Below, piece after piece: positions 10,367 through 13,886 of a DNA stretch of 64,000 nt (position 1 is its first letter; the number at the start of each line of letters is the position of its first letter). Position numbers and translations under genes: made by a program. The DNA comes from Thermoleophilaceae bacterium (GTDB lineage: Bacteria; Actinomycetota; Thermoleophilia; Solirubrobacterales; Thermoleophilaceae). The DNA lies in contig JAUJNT010000001.1 of NCBI GenBank assembly GCA_030448005.1, forward strand, positions 890,423 through 954,422, read 5' to 3'. Under the pieces are notes generated by a model. That model made no database searches, had not been told where the DNA came from, and saw nothing but the letters and a program-made list of their open reading frames with translations.

Positions 10367-11089
10367 ATGGCGAGCCGCAAGGACCAGAAGGCAGAGCTGC
10401 GCAGGGAGCGGGAGGAGCGCGAGGCCGCGGCCAAGGCGGCCGCGCGCCGCCGGCGCCTGATCGGCTACGCCGCGGGCGCCGCGGTGGTGCTGGCGGCGCT
10501 GATCGTGGCGGGGGTCCTGCTCGCCTCGGGCAAGGACGAGGGAGGACAGGGGATGTCCGGCTCGGGGGCGGTACTCCCCGAGGACGGCGAGGTCCCCGAC
10601 CAGAAGGTGACCGACCTCGAGGAGGCGGCGAAGGACGCGGGGTGCGAGCTCGAGAGCGTCAGGGCAAAGAGCCGCGAGCACACCGGAGATCTGGCCGAAA
10701 GCGTGACCTACGACTCCAAGCCGCCGGCCTCCGGCAAGCACTACGAGGTCGCAGCCGAGGACGGCGAATACGAGGATCCCCGCGACGTCAAGGAGCTCGT
10801 GCACGCCCTCGAGCACGGCCGGGTGATCATCTGGTTCAGGAAGACGCTCCCCGCCGACGAGCGGGCGAACCTGAAGGCCCTCTTCGACGAGGATCCCTAC
10901 CAGATGATCATCACCCCCGACCCCACCAGAATGACCTACGCCGTGGCGGCAACAGCCTGGACCGCAGACCCTCAGCCCAACGGCACCGGGCAGCTGCTCG
11001 GCTGCCCCCGCTTCACGCCTGCGGTGTTCGACGCAATCCGCGCGTTCAAGGACGAGCACCGCAGCAACGGGCCGGAGGCGGTGCCCTAG
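10367..11089 (+). CDS. DUF3105 membrane-anchored protein
   Basis: 240 residues from ATG 10367 (MASRKDQKAELRRERE). A basic, charged cytosolic N-terminus leads into one transmembrane helix, 'LIGYAAGAAVVLAALIVAGV' around residues 35-55. The outside domain carries the DUF3105 hallmarks: 'YDSKPPASGKHYEVAAEDG', 'KELVHALEHGRVIIWF', 'RMTYAVAATAW' and a late cysteine in 'LLGCPRF'. The family is common in actinobacteria, often with a conserved GxHxPxxx-like pocket, and has no known activity. Earlier in-frame starts add a low-complexity leader and are less likely. Confidence 0.82.
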   Translation: MASRKDQKAELRREREEREAAAKAAARRRRLIGYAAGAAVVLAALIVAGVLLASGKDEGGQGMSGSGAVLPEDGEVPDQKVTDLEEAAKDAGCELESVRAKSREHTGDLAESVTYDSKPPASGKHYEVAAEDGEYEDPRDVKELVHALEHGRVIIWFRKTLPADERANLKALFDEDPYQMIITPDPTRMTYAVAATAWTADPQPNGTGQLLGCPRFTPAVFDAIRAFKDEHRSNGPEAVP

Positions 11090-11153
11090 CAGGCCCCCTG
11101 GGAGACCGCGCGAGCAGCTCGCGCGGAACCCGGCGGAAGGTGGCTCGCGCCGT

Positions 11154-11213
11154 CTACAGAAGGACGATGACGAGGATGATGATGAGAAGCAGTGCTCCGA
11201 TTCCGATGTACAT
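11154..11213 (-). CDS. 19-residue hydrophobic membrane micropeptide
   Basis: A complete minus-strand frame, ATG at 11213 to TAG at 11154, encodes MYIGIGALLLIIILVIVLL, one almost unbroken transmembrane helix. A strong ribosome binding site, AAGGAAAGGAG, ends about six bases before the ATG. That is better than most sites in this window and is the main reason to call it. Very short MYIG.../MSLG...-type hydrophobic proteins are known from actinobacteria and proteobacteria, with no defined function. It lies alone between the DUF3105 gene and the lipoprotein gene. The rest of 11090-11399 shows no other gene. Confidence 0.6.
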   Translation of the reverse strand: MYIGIGALLLIIILVIVLL

Positions 11214-11394
11214 GGGGGCTCCTTTCCTTTTGGTGGTCACCCCTCTCATCGACCGTGGCGACGTAAGCCTTTAACGCCGCCGTCCCCCCTCACTCGTCGG
11301 CCAGATCCGTCGGTCGGCCCCGAGCGCAACCGTCGAATATCCGTCGGGTGCGCGCTCCGGGGAAGTTACCAATCGCCGAGAGCGGGGCACTAGT

Positions 11395-11406
11395 GGCTCA
11401 TGAGCC
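11395..11406. promoter_or_regulatory. Perfect 12-base palindrome over a start codon
   Basis: GGCTCATGAGCC is its own reverse complement and is centred on the ATG (11400-11402) of the cupredoxin-like lipoprotein gene. It could hide or regulate the start codon or be a protein site, or be chance. No clear ribosome binding site precedes this ATG. Confidence 0.2.
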
Positions 11407-12005
11407 CCCTGAAAAGGATCTTCATCGTTCTGGTTGTCGCTTCGTTGGGAGGGCTCAGCGCCGTTGTGGTCACCGCGTGCGGCGAAGACGACATCGTCGG
11501 TGACGACGACGAGCGGGTCGAGATCTCGCTGACCGAGCGCGATCTTTCACCCGGGCGTGTCGAGGTCAGGCCCGGTGAGATCGAGTTCGTCGTTGAGAAC
11601 GACGGGAACCGCGTCCATGCGTTCGCCGTCGAGACCCCGGACGGCATCGAGCGCACCAAGGACCTCGAGCCCGGTGAGACGGAGACCGTCACCGTCAACC
11701 TGCCAGACGGCAAGTACAAGATGTACGACCCGCTCGGCGACTACCGCGCGCGTGGCGTGCGCGGCACCGTCGTCGTCACGTCCGACGACACGAGCACCGT
11801 CAGGGAGCGGACCGTCACAGAGCGCACCGTCGAGGAGGAGCCGCCGGAGGGCGATGAACCGCCCGTGACGGTGACGGAGAGGGAGCGGGAGGTCCAACCG
11901 CCCCCCCGGCCTCGACCCCAGCGCCCGCCCCCCCCGCCGCCGCCGGCGCCCGCCCCGGAGGAAGCCCCGGTAGAGCCGACGCCGACGCCGCCGACCAGCC
12001 CGTAG
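11400..12005 (+). CDS. Lipoprotein with cupredoxin-like domain and proline-rich tail
   Basis: 201 residues. The N-terminus 'MSPLKRIFIVLVVASLGGLS' with 'VVVTACGEDD' is a lipoprotein signal with cysteine at about residue 27. Residues 40-125 form a plastocyanin/cupredoxin_1-like beta sandwich ('VEVRPGEIEFVVENDGNRVH', 'GETETVTVNLPDGKYKMYDP'). The usual copper-ligand cysteine is missing: the C-x-x-x-H-x-x-x-M end is replaced by 'YDPLGDYRARG', so copper binding is doubtful. The last 70 residues are Glu/Arg- and then Pro-rich (runs of six prolines), probably spanning peptidoglycan. It is an extracytoplasmic, membrane-tethered protein of unknown function. Confidence 0.75.
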   Translation: MSPLKRIFIVLVVASLGGLSAVVVTACGEDDIVGDDDERVEISLTERDLSPGRVEVRPGEIEFVVENDGNRVHAFAVETPDGIERTKDLEPGETETVTVNLPDGKYKMYDPLGDYRARGVRGTVVVTSDDTSTVRERTVTERTVEEEPPEGDEPPVTVTEREREVQPPPRPRPQRPPPPPPPAPAPEEAPVEPTPTPPTSP

Positions 12006-12095: not shown

Positions 12096-13886
12096 GTGTT
12101 CCCCCCTGTGGTGAAGCGCTCTCTGGCCACCGCCGTGCTCGTCTGCGTCCTCCTGCTCGGGGCGGTGGCCGCCCCTGCGCTCTCGCTGGCGCCCTGGCGG
12201 GCCGAGCCGGTGGACTTCTCCGTGGTGGCGCCCGCCGGCGCGCTGCTCGGCGAGGCGACGACTCGCGGGGCCGGCGTGGTCTCGCGTCCGCTGCGGGCGC
12301 CCAAGCGCTTCAACCTCGTGGGCCTGACATGGGCGCAGGGCGAGGAGCAGCCGGGCATCGCCGTGCGCACCCGCACCGACGCGGGCGCGTGGTCTCGCTG
12401 GGCGACGCTGCACGCCCAGCCAGAGGACGGGCCGGACCCCGGCACCGAGCCCGGTGCTCGTGGAGCGTCCGCCCCGTCCTGGGTGGGAGAGGCCGACTGG
12501 GTCCAGTACAGGCTTACCGAGCGTCCGCGGGGCCTGAGGCTCAACTTCGTGAACGTCCGCGGCAGCGCGACTGCGGCAGACCGGGCCCGAAGCGCCGTGC
12601 GCCGTGTGGCAAACGCGGGCGTGTCGTCGATCGCCGGTCTCGCGCAGGCGGTCGGTGCACGGGCGGGCGAGCCCGCGCCCCGGATAGTCCCGCGGTCCGC
12701 CTGGGGAGCCGCGGACTGCCCGCCTCGAGTCGCGCCCGACCTCGGCGAGGTGCGCGCCGCATTCGTTCACCACACCGTGAACTTGAACGACTACTCCCGC
12801 GAGGAGGCAGCAGACGTGGTGCTCGGGATCTGCCGCTTTCATCGCAACACCAACGGCTGGAACGACATCGGCTACAACTTCTTGGTCGACCGCTTTGGCA
12901 CGATCTACGAGGGCCGGGCGGGCGGGATCGACCAGGCCGTGGTCGGTGCCCAGGCGCAGGGGTACAACGAGCAGTCGACCGGCATAGCCAACCTCGGCAC
13001 GTTCTCGAGCGTCAGGCAGTCCCCGCAGGCGCTTGCCGCGATGGCGCGCCTCATCCGCTGGAAGCTGCCCGTCCACGGGATGCCCACGTCCGGGACGGCC
13101 ACCCTCGTGAGCGCCGGTGGGTCGACCAACAGGTATCCGGCCGGACGATCGCTCCGGCTCCAGCGCGTGATCGGTCACCGCGACACGGGGGCGACGGCCT
13201 GCCCCGGGGAGGCCCTCTACTCCCAGCTCCCCGAGCTTCGGCGCCTCGTGGGAAACGTGGCCCCCAGCGGCGTGGCCACGCGGGTGCTCGGCCGGGTGGC
13301 CAGCCGAACCGTGCCGTTCGGGGGCACGGTGCCGGTCGCCGGCACCCTGACGGTGTCCGGCGGAGCGCCGCTAGCGCGCCAGCCCGTGCAGGTCCAGGCG
13401 CTGATCGGCCGCCGGTGGCGCGCGGTGGCCGAGGCCTCGACAGGCAACGCGGGTGAGATCGGGGCGATCATCAAGCCCATGCGCAACAGATCGCTGAGGC
13501 TGCGCTACGGGGGCCTCGGTGAGCTCCGTGCCGCCACCTCACCCACCTTCTCCGTGGGCGTACGGCCGCTGCTGGCGCTCTCGCCAACTGTCCGCGCCGT
13601 GGCACGCGGTACGCGCGTGGTGGTGCGCGGACGTGTCCGGCCGCGCAAGGCGCGCGTCATCCAGGTGCTCCAGCGAAAGCGCGGAGCGCGCTTTAGCACG
13701 GTCGCGACCTACGCGGTGAGGACCCGCCGCGACGGGCGCTTCCGCGGAACCTTCGTGCCGGCCCGCAGCGGCACCTACCGCTTCTTCATCGTGGCGAGAG
13801 GCGACCGCTCCACCGCCCGGGCGGCCACCCGCAAGCTGTCCCTGCGCGTCGGGCGCTCCCGCGGTGGCGGTGCCGCGGCCCCCTAG
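12096..13886 (+). CDS. Secreted PGRP/amidase-type peptidoglycan hydrolase
   Basis: Up to 596 residues; GTG codons at 12096, 12108 and 12111 all precede the same signal peptide 'KRSLATAVLVCVLLLGAVAA'. Residues about 190-390 hold a peptidoglycan-recognition/amidase_2 domain: 'PRIVPRSAWGAADCPPR', 'VRAAFVHHTVNLNDY' (zinc histidine), 'NGWNDIGYNFLVDRFGTIYE', 'GIANLGTF' and the late 'VIGHRDTGATACPGEALY' with the second zinc histidine and cysteine. This matches N-acetylmuramoyl-L-alanine amidases of the actinobacterial PGRP type. The C-terminal 190 residues are Arg-rich beta-sandwich repeats, probably for wall attachment. Stop overlaps the opposing sugar-transferase stop. Confidence 0.88.
   Translation: MFPPVVKRSLATAVLVCVLLLGAVAAPALSLAPWRAEPVDFSVVAPAGALLGEATTRGAGVVSRPLRAPKRFNLVGLTWAQGEEQPGIAVRTRTDAGAWSRWATLHAQPEDGPDPGTEPGARGASAPSWVGEADWVQYRLTERPRGLRLNFVNVRGSATAADRARSAVRRVANAGVSSIAGLAQAVGARAGEPAPRIVPRSAWGAADCPPRVAPDLGEVRAAFVHHTVNLNDYSREEAADVVLGICRFHRNTNGWNDIGYNFLVDRFGTIYEGRAGGIDQAVVGAQAQGYNEQSTGIANLGTFSSVRQSPQALAAMARLIRWKLPVHGMPTSGTATLVSAGGSTNRYPAGRSLRLQRVIGHRDTGATACPGEALYSQLPELRRLVGNVAPSGVATRVLGRVASRTVPFGGTVPVAGTLTVSGGAPLARQPVQVQALIGRRWRAVAEASTGNAGEIGAIIKPMRNRSLRLRYGGLGELRAATSPTFSVGVRPLLALSPTVRAVARGTRVVVRGRVRPRKARVIQVLQRKRGARFSTVATYAVRTRRDGRFRGTFVPARSGTYRFFIVARGDRSTARAATRKLSLRVGRSRGGGAAAP

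What the first reader, a model, noticed from the sequence alone, without database searches (positions are those of the whole stretch)
11154..11213. A 19-residue membrane peptide with a strong ribosome binding site
The frame is too short for normal gene callers, but its site AAGGAAAGGAG is among the best here and the product is a clean helix. Such micropeptides often act on transporters or kinases.
Basis: seen in the sequence. Interest (0 to 1): 0.5.

Follow-up and report, generated by a model that had tools for sequence, protein, structure and literature searches.

The report
Nineteen-residue membrane micropeptide family (MYIGxG)
A gene of only 19 codons, too short for ordinary gene finders, proves to be a real membrane peptide shared by a patchy set of actinobacteria, usually behind a general-stress switch in the window's own order, and close look-alikes are carried by uncultured phages.

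Summary
On the minus strand, 11213..11154, lies MYIGIGALLLIIILVIVLL-stop with an AAGGAAAGGAG ribosome site. It is a real gene: 100 dinucleotide shuffles of the window gave no such ORF, and the frame recurs with conservative changes in 33 of 232 genomes of the order. It also occurs elsewhere in Actinomycetota and in 44 IMG/VR viral stretches. The common core is MYIGxG[T/A] plus 11-15 hydrophobic residues; the members scanned match no Pfam or NCBIfam model above its cut-off.

(1) In the order, 24 of 31 distinct members have GNNT-N15-17-GGGTA upstream, the SigB/SigF general-stress promoter form (0.54% of random windows). Where this box sits 15-16 nt before the start codon the ribosome site is mostly missing (2 of 11 have one; probably leaderless); where it is further away 14 of 15 have one. 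The window's own copy has only a degenerate box. (2) In one other family the peptide forms a two-gene cassette with a small glycine-rich membrane protein.

Best reading: a bare transmembrane helix, made under stress in most relatives, that acts in the membrane, most likely by docking on another membrane protein. The partner is unproven. Viral copies are longer and mostly carry arginines at the end; some lie beside lysis genes.

The parts
11154..11213 (-). 19-codon gene: MYIGIGALLLIIILVIVLL, stop TAG
   Evidence: reading; relatives; substitution pattern; chance
11219..11229 (-). ribosome binding site AAGGAAAGGAG, 5 nt before ATG
11237..11262 (-). degenerate stress-promoter-like element: GTCG (11262-11259), N16, GGGTGA (11242-11237). 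Most order relatives have GNNT-N15-17-GGGTA; this copy does not match that consensus
   Evidence: weak
11106..11126 (-). 9-bp perfect G+C-rich hairpin 27 nt after the stop, possible terminator without a T run
   Evidence: 18 of 30 order members have a stem of at least 7 bp within 75 nt, 1.6 expected from base-composition shuffles; no terminator with a T run found

Best explanation
The frame is a real gene for a single-span membrane micropeptide of an unnamed family (MYIGxG[T/A] + 11-15 I/L/V residues). SHOWN by sequence: selection on the peptide; in the order a SigB/SigF-type promoter motif before most copies and a hairpin after 18 of 30. INFERRED: in most of these relatives it is its own transcription unit and is made when a general-stress sigma factor is active; how the window's own copy is regulated is open, because its box is degenerate. 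INFERRED: the peptide inserts as a bare helix; the recurrent small, aromatic and glycine residues at its N-terminal membrane edge (Tyr2, Gly4, Gly6, Thr/Ala7) form a recognition face, and the interchangeable I/L/V stretch is a membrane anchor. SPECULATIVE: it works by docking on the helix of another membrane protein and so adjusting that protein under stress. The one candidate partner is the glycine-rich protein encoded immediately downstream in family f18. My split: real gene 0.97; stress-type promoter as an order-level trait 0.85; docking on a partner rather than a direct effect on the lipid membrane about 0.45.
For: Gene: 31 of 232 genomes of the order match (no reversed-pattern control match) and all read as micropeptides, plus G002 and G003 of the same genus with MNIGIGIGT.../MGIGIGIGT.... 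In the least biased set (11 members found only by GGAG..MYIG), pairwise single changes in codons 5-18 are 137 synonymous, 126 non-synonymous and 0 to a residue outside I/L/V/M/F/A/W/C/T/G or a stop, against 12.8% of that kind expected; codon position 2 is 98% conserved, positions 1 and 3 67%, flanks 46.5-48.5%. G6 (11 of 11) and T7 (8 of 11) were not in that pattern. Promoter: GGGTA within 90 nt in 26 of 31 distinct order members and GNNT-N15-17-GGGTA in 24 of 31, against 3.1% and 0.54% of 11,500 random windows and 14 and 3 of 191 upstream regions of called genes; spacing peaks at 16. G002 and G003 also have GNNT-N16-GGGTA. The motif matches published SigB/SigF types (passages of PMC8346170; PMC4694148). 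SigBFG-family sigma factors (TIGR02980) pass the cut-off in 175 of 232 genomes, the window's included. Start mode: GGGTA at -15/-16, ribosome site in 2 of 11; further away, 14 of 15; none, 5 of 5. Hairpin. Partner: in family f18 the peptide pattern is in 14 of 35 genomes and the downstream protein in 13 of 35, together and adjacent in 12, Fisher p = 1.3e-6.
Against: The window's copy lacks GGGTA, as do 4 of the other 30 distinct members. Outside the order the full promoter is found in 4 of 18 members, and in viral members in 2 of 33. By these searches 199 of 232 genomes of the order lack the gene, although 175 of 232 have the sigma factor over its cut-off, so it looks dispensable. A second frame over the gene (+2) is also open in 30 of 31 members, so openness alone is no proof; the case rests on the substitutions. 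The f18 partner has no convincing relative in the order (4 of 232 hits, E 0.001-0.01, in frames of 261-721 aa, none in the window's genome), so in the window any partner must be another protein. No expression, localisation or interaction data exist. Members are related and the pairwise counts overlap, so 26 of 31 overstates independent events; by genus, 11 of 13 carrier genera have at least one GGGTA copy (counted by eye).
Confidence: 0.5

Rival explanations
1. Membrane-state effector: the stress-made peptide lowers membrane fluidity or potential directly and puts the cell into a protected, quiet state, with no specific protein partner (like E. coli YohP; TisB as a toxic peptide of similar kind).
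For: Stress-type promoter; purely hydrophobic body with freely exchanged I/L/V; YohP, 27 aa and stress-induced, lowers membrane potential and silences metabolism (PMC12719787: abstract and passages).
Against: The recurrent N-terminal signature and the two-gene cassette in f18 suggest a specific contact. No polar or charged face for a pore in order members (0 of 31 with D/E, 2 of 31 with K/R).
Confidence: 0.33
2. Phage-born lysis or late-stage peptide (pinholin-like or holin modulator) of which the bacterial copies are captured, stress-wired descendants.
For: 44 viral stretches, all stand-alone 19-26 aa ORFs. Amidase, GH25 endolysin or holin genes lie within 1.5 kb in L282, L294, L300, L310, L323. 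Pfam lysis matches: 6 of 121 near genes against 0 of 84 genes beyond 3 kb.
Against: That enrichment is weak (P of all six falling in the near set 0.04). For most of the 33 distinct viral members no lysis gene was recognised nearby; two lie next to what reads as terminase (L184, L307). Viral and order subtypes differ: K/R in 26 of 33 against 2 of 31. Direction of transfer untested.
Confidence: 0.12
3. Hydrophobic toxin of a type I toxin-antitoxin pair (Ibs/Ldr-like), silenced by an antisense RNA.
For: Size, hydrophobicity and a one-gene unit with hairpin resemble such toxins (recalled).
Against: No Rfam family above its gathering score in 10900-11500 (one match to an enterobacterial sRNA at 21.5 bits against a gathering score of 60). 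No sigma-70-like promoter on either strand of 11000-11500, which does not exclude other promoters. The probable leaderless copies leave no 5' UTR for the usual control (recalled). Single match in the window's genome.
Confidence: 0.05
4. Not a protein gene: a small RNA, attenuator or leader with an accidental frame.
For: Short transcript-sized unit with hairpin; the +2 frame is open too in 30 of 31 members.
Against: Protein-type substitutions, conserved stop position, poorly conserved flanks, no gene cluster shared by more than 7 of the 41 loci compared.
Confidence: 0.02

Closest known systems
YohP of E. coli (27-aa stress-induced membrane protein)
   Same: Single-span peptide under 30 aa, made under stress, no catalytic activity known (PMC12719787, abstract and passages).
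   Different: No sequence comparison made; different host and length; no phage relatives of it mentioned in what I saw.
AcrZ / KdpF / MgtS-type partner-binding micropeptides
   Same: Stand-alone small membrane proteins; AcrZ interacts with the transmembrane part of AcrB (PMC7267776, start of abstract in the listing; KdpF and MgtS recalled).
   Different: Partner here unknown; order-level members have hardly any residues outside the membrane stretch.
TatA/TatE N-terminal membrane helix
   Same: Weak hits cover the same stretch (Pfam PF02416 E 1.2 at best, NCBIfam TIGR01411 E 1.8 at best).
   Different: Far below the curated cut-offs; no second helix. The polar residue expected in the TatA membrane helix (recalled) is absent.
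C-terminal sorting helices GG_III-CTERM (NF041738) and VPDSG-CTERM (PF18205)
   Same: The strongest sub-threshold hits: GG_III-CTERM 17.4 bits, E 0.003 (window peptide with one arginine added by me) and 13.5 bits, E 0.052 (another member); VPDSG-CTERM 15.1 bits, E 0.02 (a 24-aa member ending in arginines).
   Different: Below cut-offs of 22 and 25 bits; those models describe tails of larger proteins (recalled), this is a whole gene.
SigB/SigF general-stress regulons of Streptomyces and Mycobacterium
   Same: Promoter shape GNNT or GTTT, spacer, GGGTA (PMC8346170, PMC4694148, passages).
   Different: Sigma dependence not tested in this order; the peptide family was not seen in the passages I read.

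Membership tests
MYIGxG micropeptide family (defined here) | MYIGxG start, then an uninterrupted hydrophobic stretch to a stop at 19-26 codons | tested here: met
   Window peptide. MYIG was part of most search patterns, so its constancy is partly imposed; G6 (11 of 11) and T7 (8 of 11) were free. G002, G003 and the two g8 copies deviate at the start
SigB/SigF-type stress regulon | GNNT-N14-19-GGGTA upstream | tested here: not met
   Window copy: only GTCG-N16-GGGTGA. Met in 24 of 31 order members with N15-17, so the regulon claim is for the family in the order, not for this copy
SigB/SigF-type stress regulon | Transcription depends on that sigma factor | not testable with these tools
   needs RNA data
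TatA/E | Match to TIGR01411 / PF02416 above cut-off | tested here: not met
   8.2 bits against 53.9; 8.8 bits against 21
GG_III-CTERM / VPDSG-CTERM | Match above cut-off | tested here: not met
   17.4 bits against 22; 15.1 bits against 25
Type I toxin-antitoxin | Antisense or paired RNA | tested here: inconclusive
   No Rfam family above gathering score, no sigma-70-like promoter; absence not proven
Phage holin / pinholin | Lies with endolysin in the phage lysis cassette | tested here: inconclusive
   Lysis gene within 1.5 kb by domain match in at least 5 of 33 distinct viral members
Partner-binding membrane micropeptide (AcrZ-like) | Physical complex with a membrane protein | not testable with these tools
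   Indirect: two-gene cassette in family f18

The most novel reading that the evidence does not exclude
One tiny helix, MYIGxG plus a hydrophobic tail, is shared by hosts and phages: actinobacteria make it under a general-stress sigma factor, from leaderless or Shine-Dalgarno-led mRNAs as the promoter moves, while phages carry an arginine-tailed version, in some cases among late and lysis genes. Both versions would act on the same conserved membrane target, so that phages use the host's own stress switch in the membrane.
Probability: 0.25. Interest if true: 0.85.

Novelty: new member of a known kind. Interest (0 to 1): 0.6.

Why it matters
Small membrane proteins are said not to show strong sequence conservation (PMC12719787, passage); here a 19-residue peptide has a signature that one pattern finds in bacteria and viral contigs, so its role can be tested wherever a carrier can be grown. 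The switch between copies with and without a ribosome site, in step with promoter position, offers a natural comparison of two ways of starting translation. The f18 cassette hands over a ready candidate partner.

Tried and rejected
Longer start (31 aa from ATG 11249): rejected, upstream not conserved. Known families: the 31-aa extension has no Pfam match; five members of 20 aa or more in Pfam and two peptides in NCBIfam gave sub-threshold hits only. Recalled likeness to the start of DUF3309 proteins: not confirmed (no such match); a paper search for DUF3309 with stress gave none. Conserved neighbours: the widest gene cluster is in 7 of 41 loci. Between the window and stretches of G001 (4.5 kb), G002 (12 kb) and G003 (4 kb) of its genus, blastn aligned only the peptide region in G001 and G002 and nothing in G003; tblastx gave scattered short pieces. 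Print: no paper of the open library holds MYIGIGT, MYIGLGT or MYIGGG in its text; Solirubrobacter with small proteins gave two unrelated listings. Supplements could not be searched. Cultured phages: tblastn of one viral peptide gave no match (the low-complexity filter may hide it). Neighbours of viral copies led to no close cultured phage, and three actinophage stretches held no RTGTAYATHGGN. Another order: of 200 genomes of the order of G614 (record title Burkholderiales), 4 match; G614 (two copies) and G779 read as micropeptides, G745 is inside a 145-aa frame, G759 a 21-aa frame of doubtful kinship. Rows dropped: L003 and L007 (not short hydrophobic frames), L166 and L171 (failed the filter; L171 is a 15-aa frame with arginine at position 6). 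Lysis-cassette placement as a general rule: rejected, too few.

Full report
WHAT IS THERE. On the minus strand of the window, 11213..11154, a frame of 19 codons reads MYIGIGALLLIIILVIVLL and stops at TAG. AAGGAAAGGAG ends 5 nt before ATG. The gene lies alone between a divergent cupredoxin-domain protein (11400-12005 plus; PF13473) and a convergent DUF3105 protein (ends 11089 plus; PF11303). A 9-bp G+C-rich hairpin follows 27 nt after the stop. Among uncharged ORFs of 14-30 codons in the window it is the only one with at least 10 consecutive I/L/V/M/F, and 100 dinucleotide shuffles give none.

RELATIVES. A pattern asking for MYIGxG and eight T second bases, one mismatch allowed, finds 31 of 232 genomes of the order, with no match of the reversed control; all of them read as micropeptides. 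A profile search of 111 genomes adds G002 and G003 of the window's own genus, with MNIGIGIGTLILIIILVILLT and MGIGIGIGTLILIIVLVILLT, so 33 of 232. A core pattern over all 232 shows 36 genomes with a match, but also matches in other frames, and I added nothing from it. The two copies of genus g8 begin 2-3 residues earlier (read by eye). Distribution is patchy: 7 of 7 genomes of genus g43, 13 of 54 genera in all. In the phylum sample 23 of 396 genomes match; outside the order 18 members in 17 genomes read as micropeptides. G014 of the window's family carries the same peptide on a contig of the same length as L022, Thermoleophilaceae bacterium MGR_bin120, which places the window near that family; that the order is Solirubrobacterales is recalled taxonomy.

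IT IS A PROTEIN GENE. Because the patterns fix parts of the sequence, the fair test uses the 11 members (of 13 places) found with only GGAG...ATGTAYATHGG. Over codons 5-18, pairwise, there are 137 synonymous and 126 non-synonymous single changes, none to a polar or charged residue or a stop, where 12.8% would be expected; second codon positions are 98% conserved, first and third 67%, flanks 46.5-48.5%. G6 recurs in 11 of 11 and T7 in 8 of 11 although that search left them free. The larger set of 31 gives the same picture, but there the pattern itself held the second bases of codons 8-15. Against a naive reading: the +1 frame has a stop in 28 of 31 members, but the +2 frame is open in 30 of 31, so openness is no argument. 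The pairs share ancestry, so the counts are not independent.

THE STRESS PROMOTER. Of 31 distinct order members, 26 have GGGTA and 24 GNNT-N15-17-GGGTA within 90 nt, against 3.1% and 0.54% of 11,500 random windows and 14 and 3 of 191 upstream regions of called genes in the same loci. Spacing peaks at 16 (19 members). This is the form reported for SigB homologues of Streptomyces coelicolor (-35 GNNT or GTTT, -10 GGGTA; in the table passages seen, 3-11 and mostly 6-11 nt follow the -10 box up to what I read as the start point; PMC8346170) and for SigF of Mycobacterium smegmatis (GTTT-N14-19-GGGTA; passages of PMC4694148). SigBFG-family sigma factors pass their cut-off in 175 of 232 genomes including the window's, and all 232 have a match at E 0.001, so the sigma factor is common and does not explain the patchy peptide. 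In 11 members GGGTA starts at -15 or -16, which would place the mRNA start within a few nt of ATG; only 2 of these 11 have a Shine-Dalgarno motif, while 14 of 15 with a distant box and 5 of 5 with no box have one. Leaderless translation is an inference from this. The window's own copy belongs to the last group: it has GTCG-N16-GGGTGA, and G001 of its genus has GGTT-N16-GGGAA, but G002 and G003 have the full box. By genus it is 11 of 13 (counted by eye).

TRANSCRIPTION UNIT. A perfect hairpin of at least 7 bp lies within 75 nt after the stop in 18 of 30 order members, against 1.6 in base-composition shuffles. Neighbouring genes are shared mainly between close genera; the widest cluster is in 7 of 41 loci.

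THE CASSETTE. In family f18 of the same phylum the copies checked lack the GGGTA box, and where the start was read the peptide is followed, 34-60 nt after its stop, by a protein of mostly about 75-120 aa with one glycine-rich membrane stretch and a GRDCI[E/Q]...YC motif. Of 35 genomes, 14 match the peptide pattern, 13 the protein, and 12 both, adjacent in each (coordinates; Fisher p 1.3e-6). The exceptions are G828 (protein at a contig edge), G420 (a 15-aa frame with arginine at position 6) and G824 (peptide alone). In G822 the protein's start was not found in my reading. Pfam has no match for the one member scanned. The order has no convincing relative of it (4 of 232 at E 0.001-0.01).

VIRAL COPIES. 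The same pattern without mismatches finds 44 stretches in viral contigs, and all 44 are stand-alone frames of 19-26 codons, 33 distinct peptides. Two control patterns with the signature changed, M-I-Y-G-x-G and M-Y-I-A-x-A, give 2 and 4 stretches. Viral peptides are longer (median 23 against 19) and carry K/R in 26 of 33 against 2 of 31 in the order, which by the positive-inside rule suggests N-out, C-in (inference). The full stress box is found in 2 of 33, GGGTA alone in 7 of 33. Some copies lie beside lysis genes (GH25 endolysin directly upstream in L300, amidase directly upstream in L294, amidase within two genes downstream in L310 and L323, a Dp-1-type holin two genes downstream in L282). 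Two lie beside what reads as terminase genes (L184; L307); PHROGs large-terminase families match among the near genes, without saying which gene. Pfam lysis matches are 6 of 121 near genes against 0 of 84 genes beyond 3 kb, P 0.04, suggestive only; the PHROGs lists were capped at 25 families each. My gene calls in these contigs are simple longest-frame calls, and only genes on the peptide's strand were scanned.

HOW IT MAY WORK. The freely exchanged I/L/V body is an anchor; Tyr2, Gly4, Gly6 and Thr/Ala7 lie at one membrane edge and look like a contact face. With a stress promoter in most order relatives and a fixed membrane neighbour in f18, docking on a membrane protein is my first choice, a direct effect on the membrane as described for YohP (PMC12719787, abstract and passages) the second. 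Neither is shown.

NOVELTY. Small stress-made membrane peptides are a known kind. The members scanned reach no Pfam or NCBIfam cut-off, and three signature strings occur in no paper of the open library. That viral contigs share it, and that promoter placement goes with the presence or absence of a ribosome site, I have not seen reported; apart no search was aimed at this.

Noticed in passing
L206-L210, L216, L333-L353 (family f18): Unnamed small membrane protein (mostly about 75-120 aa, motif GLSN-TQ...GRDCI[E/Q]...YC) that in 35 genomes of its family was found directly downstream of the micropeptide in 12 of the 13 genomes that have it; the thirteenth lies at a contig edge.
   Followed up: yes
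L183:372-2521: A 128-kb viral contig carries, upstream of the peptide, what reads as a PnuC-like transporter, a kinase-like protein (phrog_505) and a NadR-like nicotinamide-nucleotide adenylyltransferase (phrog_3462 was matched by one of the 121 near genes).
   Followed up: partly
window 12096-13886: About 0.9 kb from the peptide lies a large protein that reads by eye like an N-acetylmuramoyl-L-alanine amidase/PGRP protein; not tested, probably unrelated to the peptide.
   Followed up: no
G420:C238 (L171): A 15-residue copy with arginine in place of Gly6 and no partner gene found in its genome, apparently a decaying member.
   Followed up: partly
L274, L277 (G614, record title Burkholderiales): Two copies in one betaproteobacterial genome, far from the actinobacterial core; 4 of 200 genomes of its order match at all, 2 of them with clear micropeptides.
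   Followed up: partly
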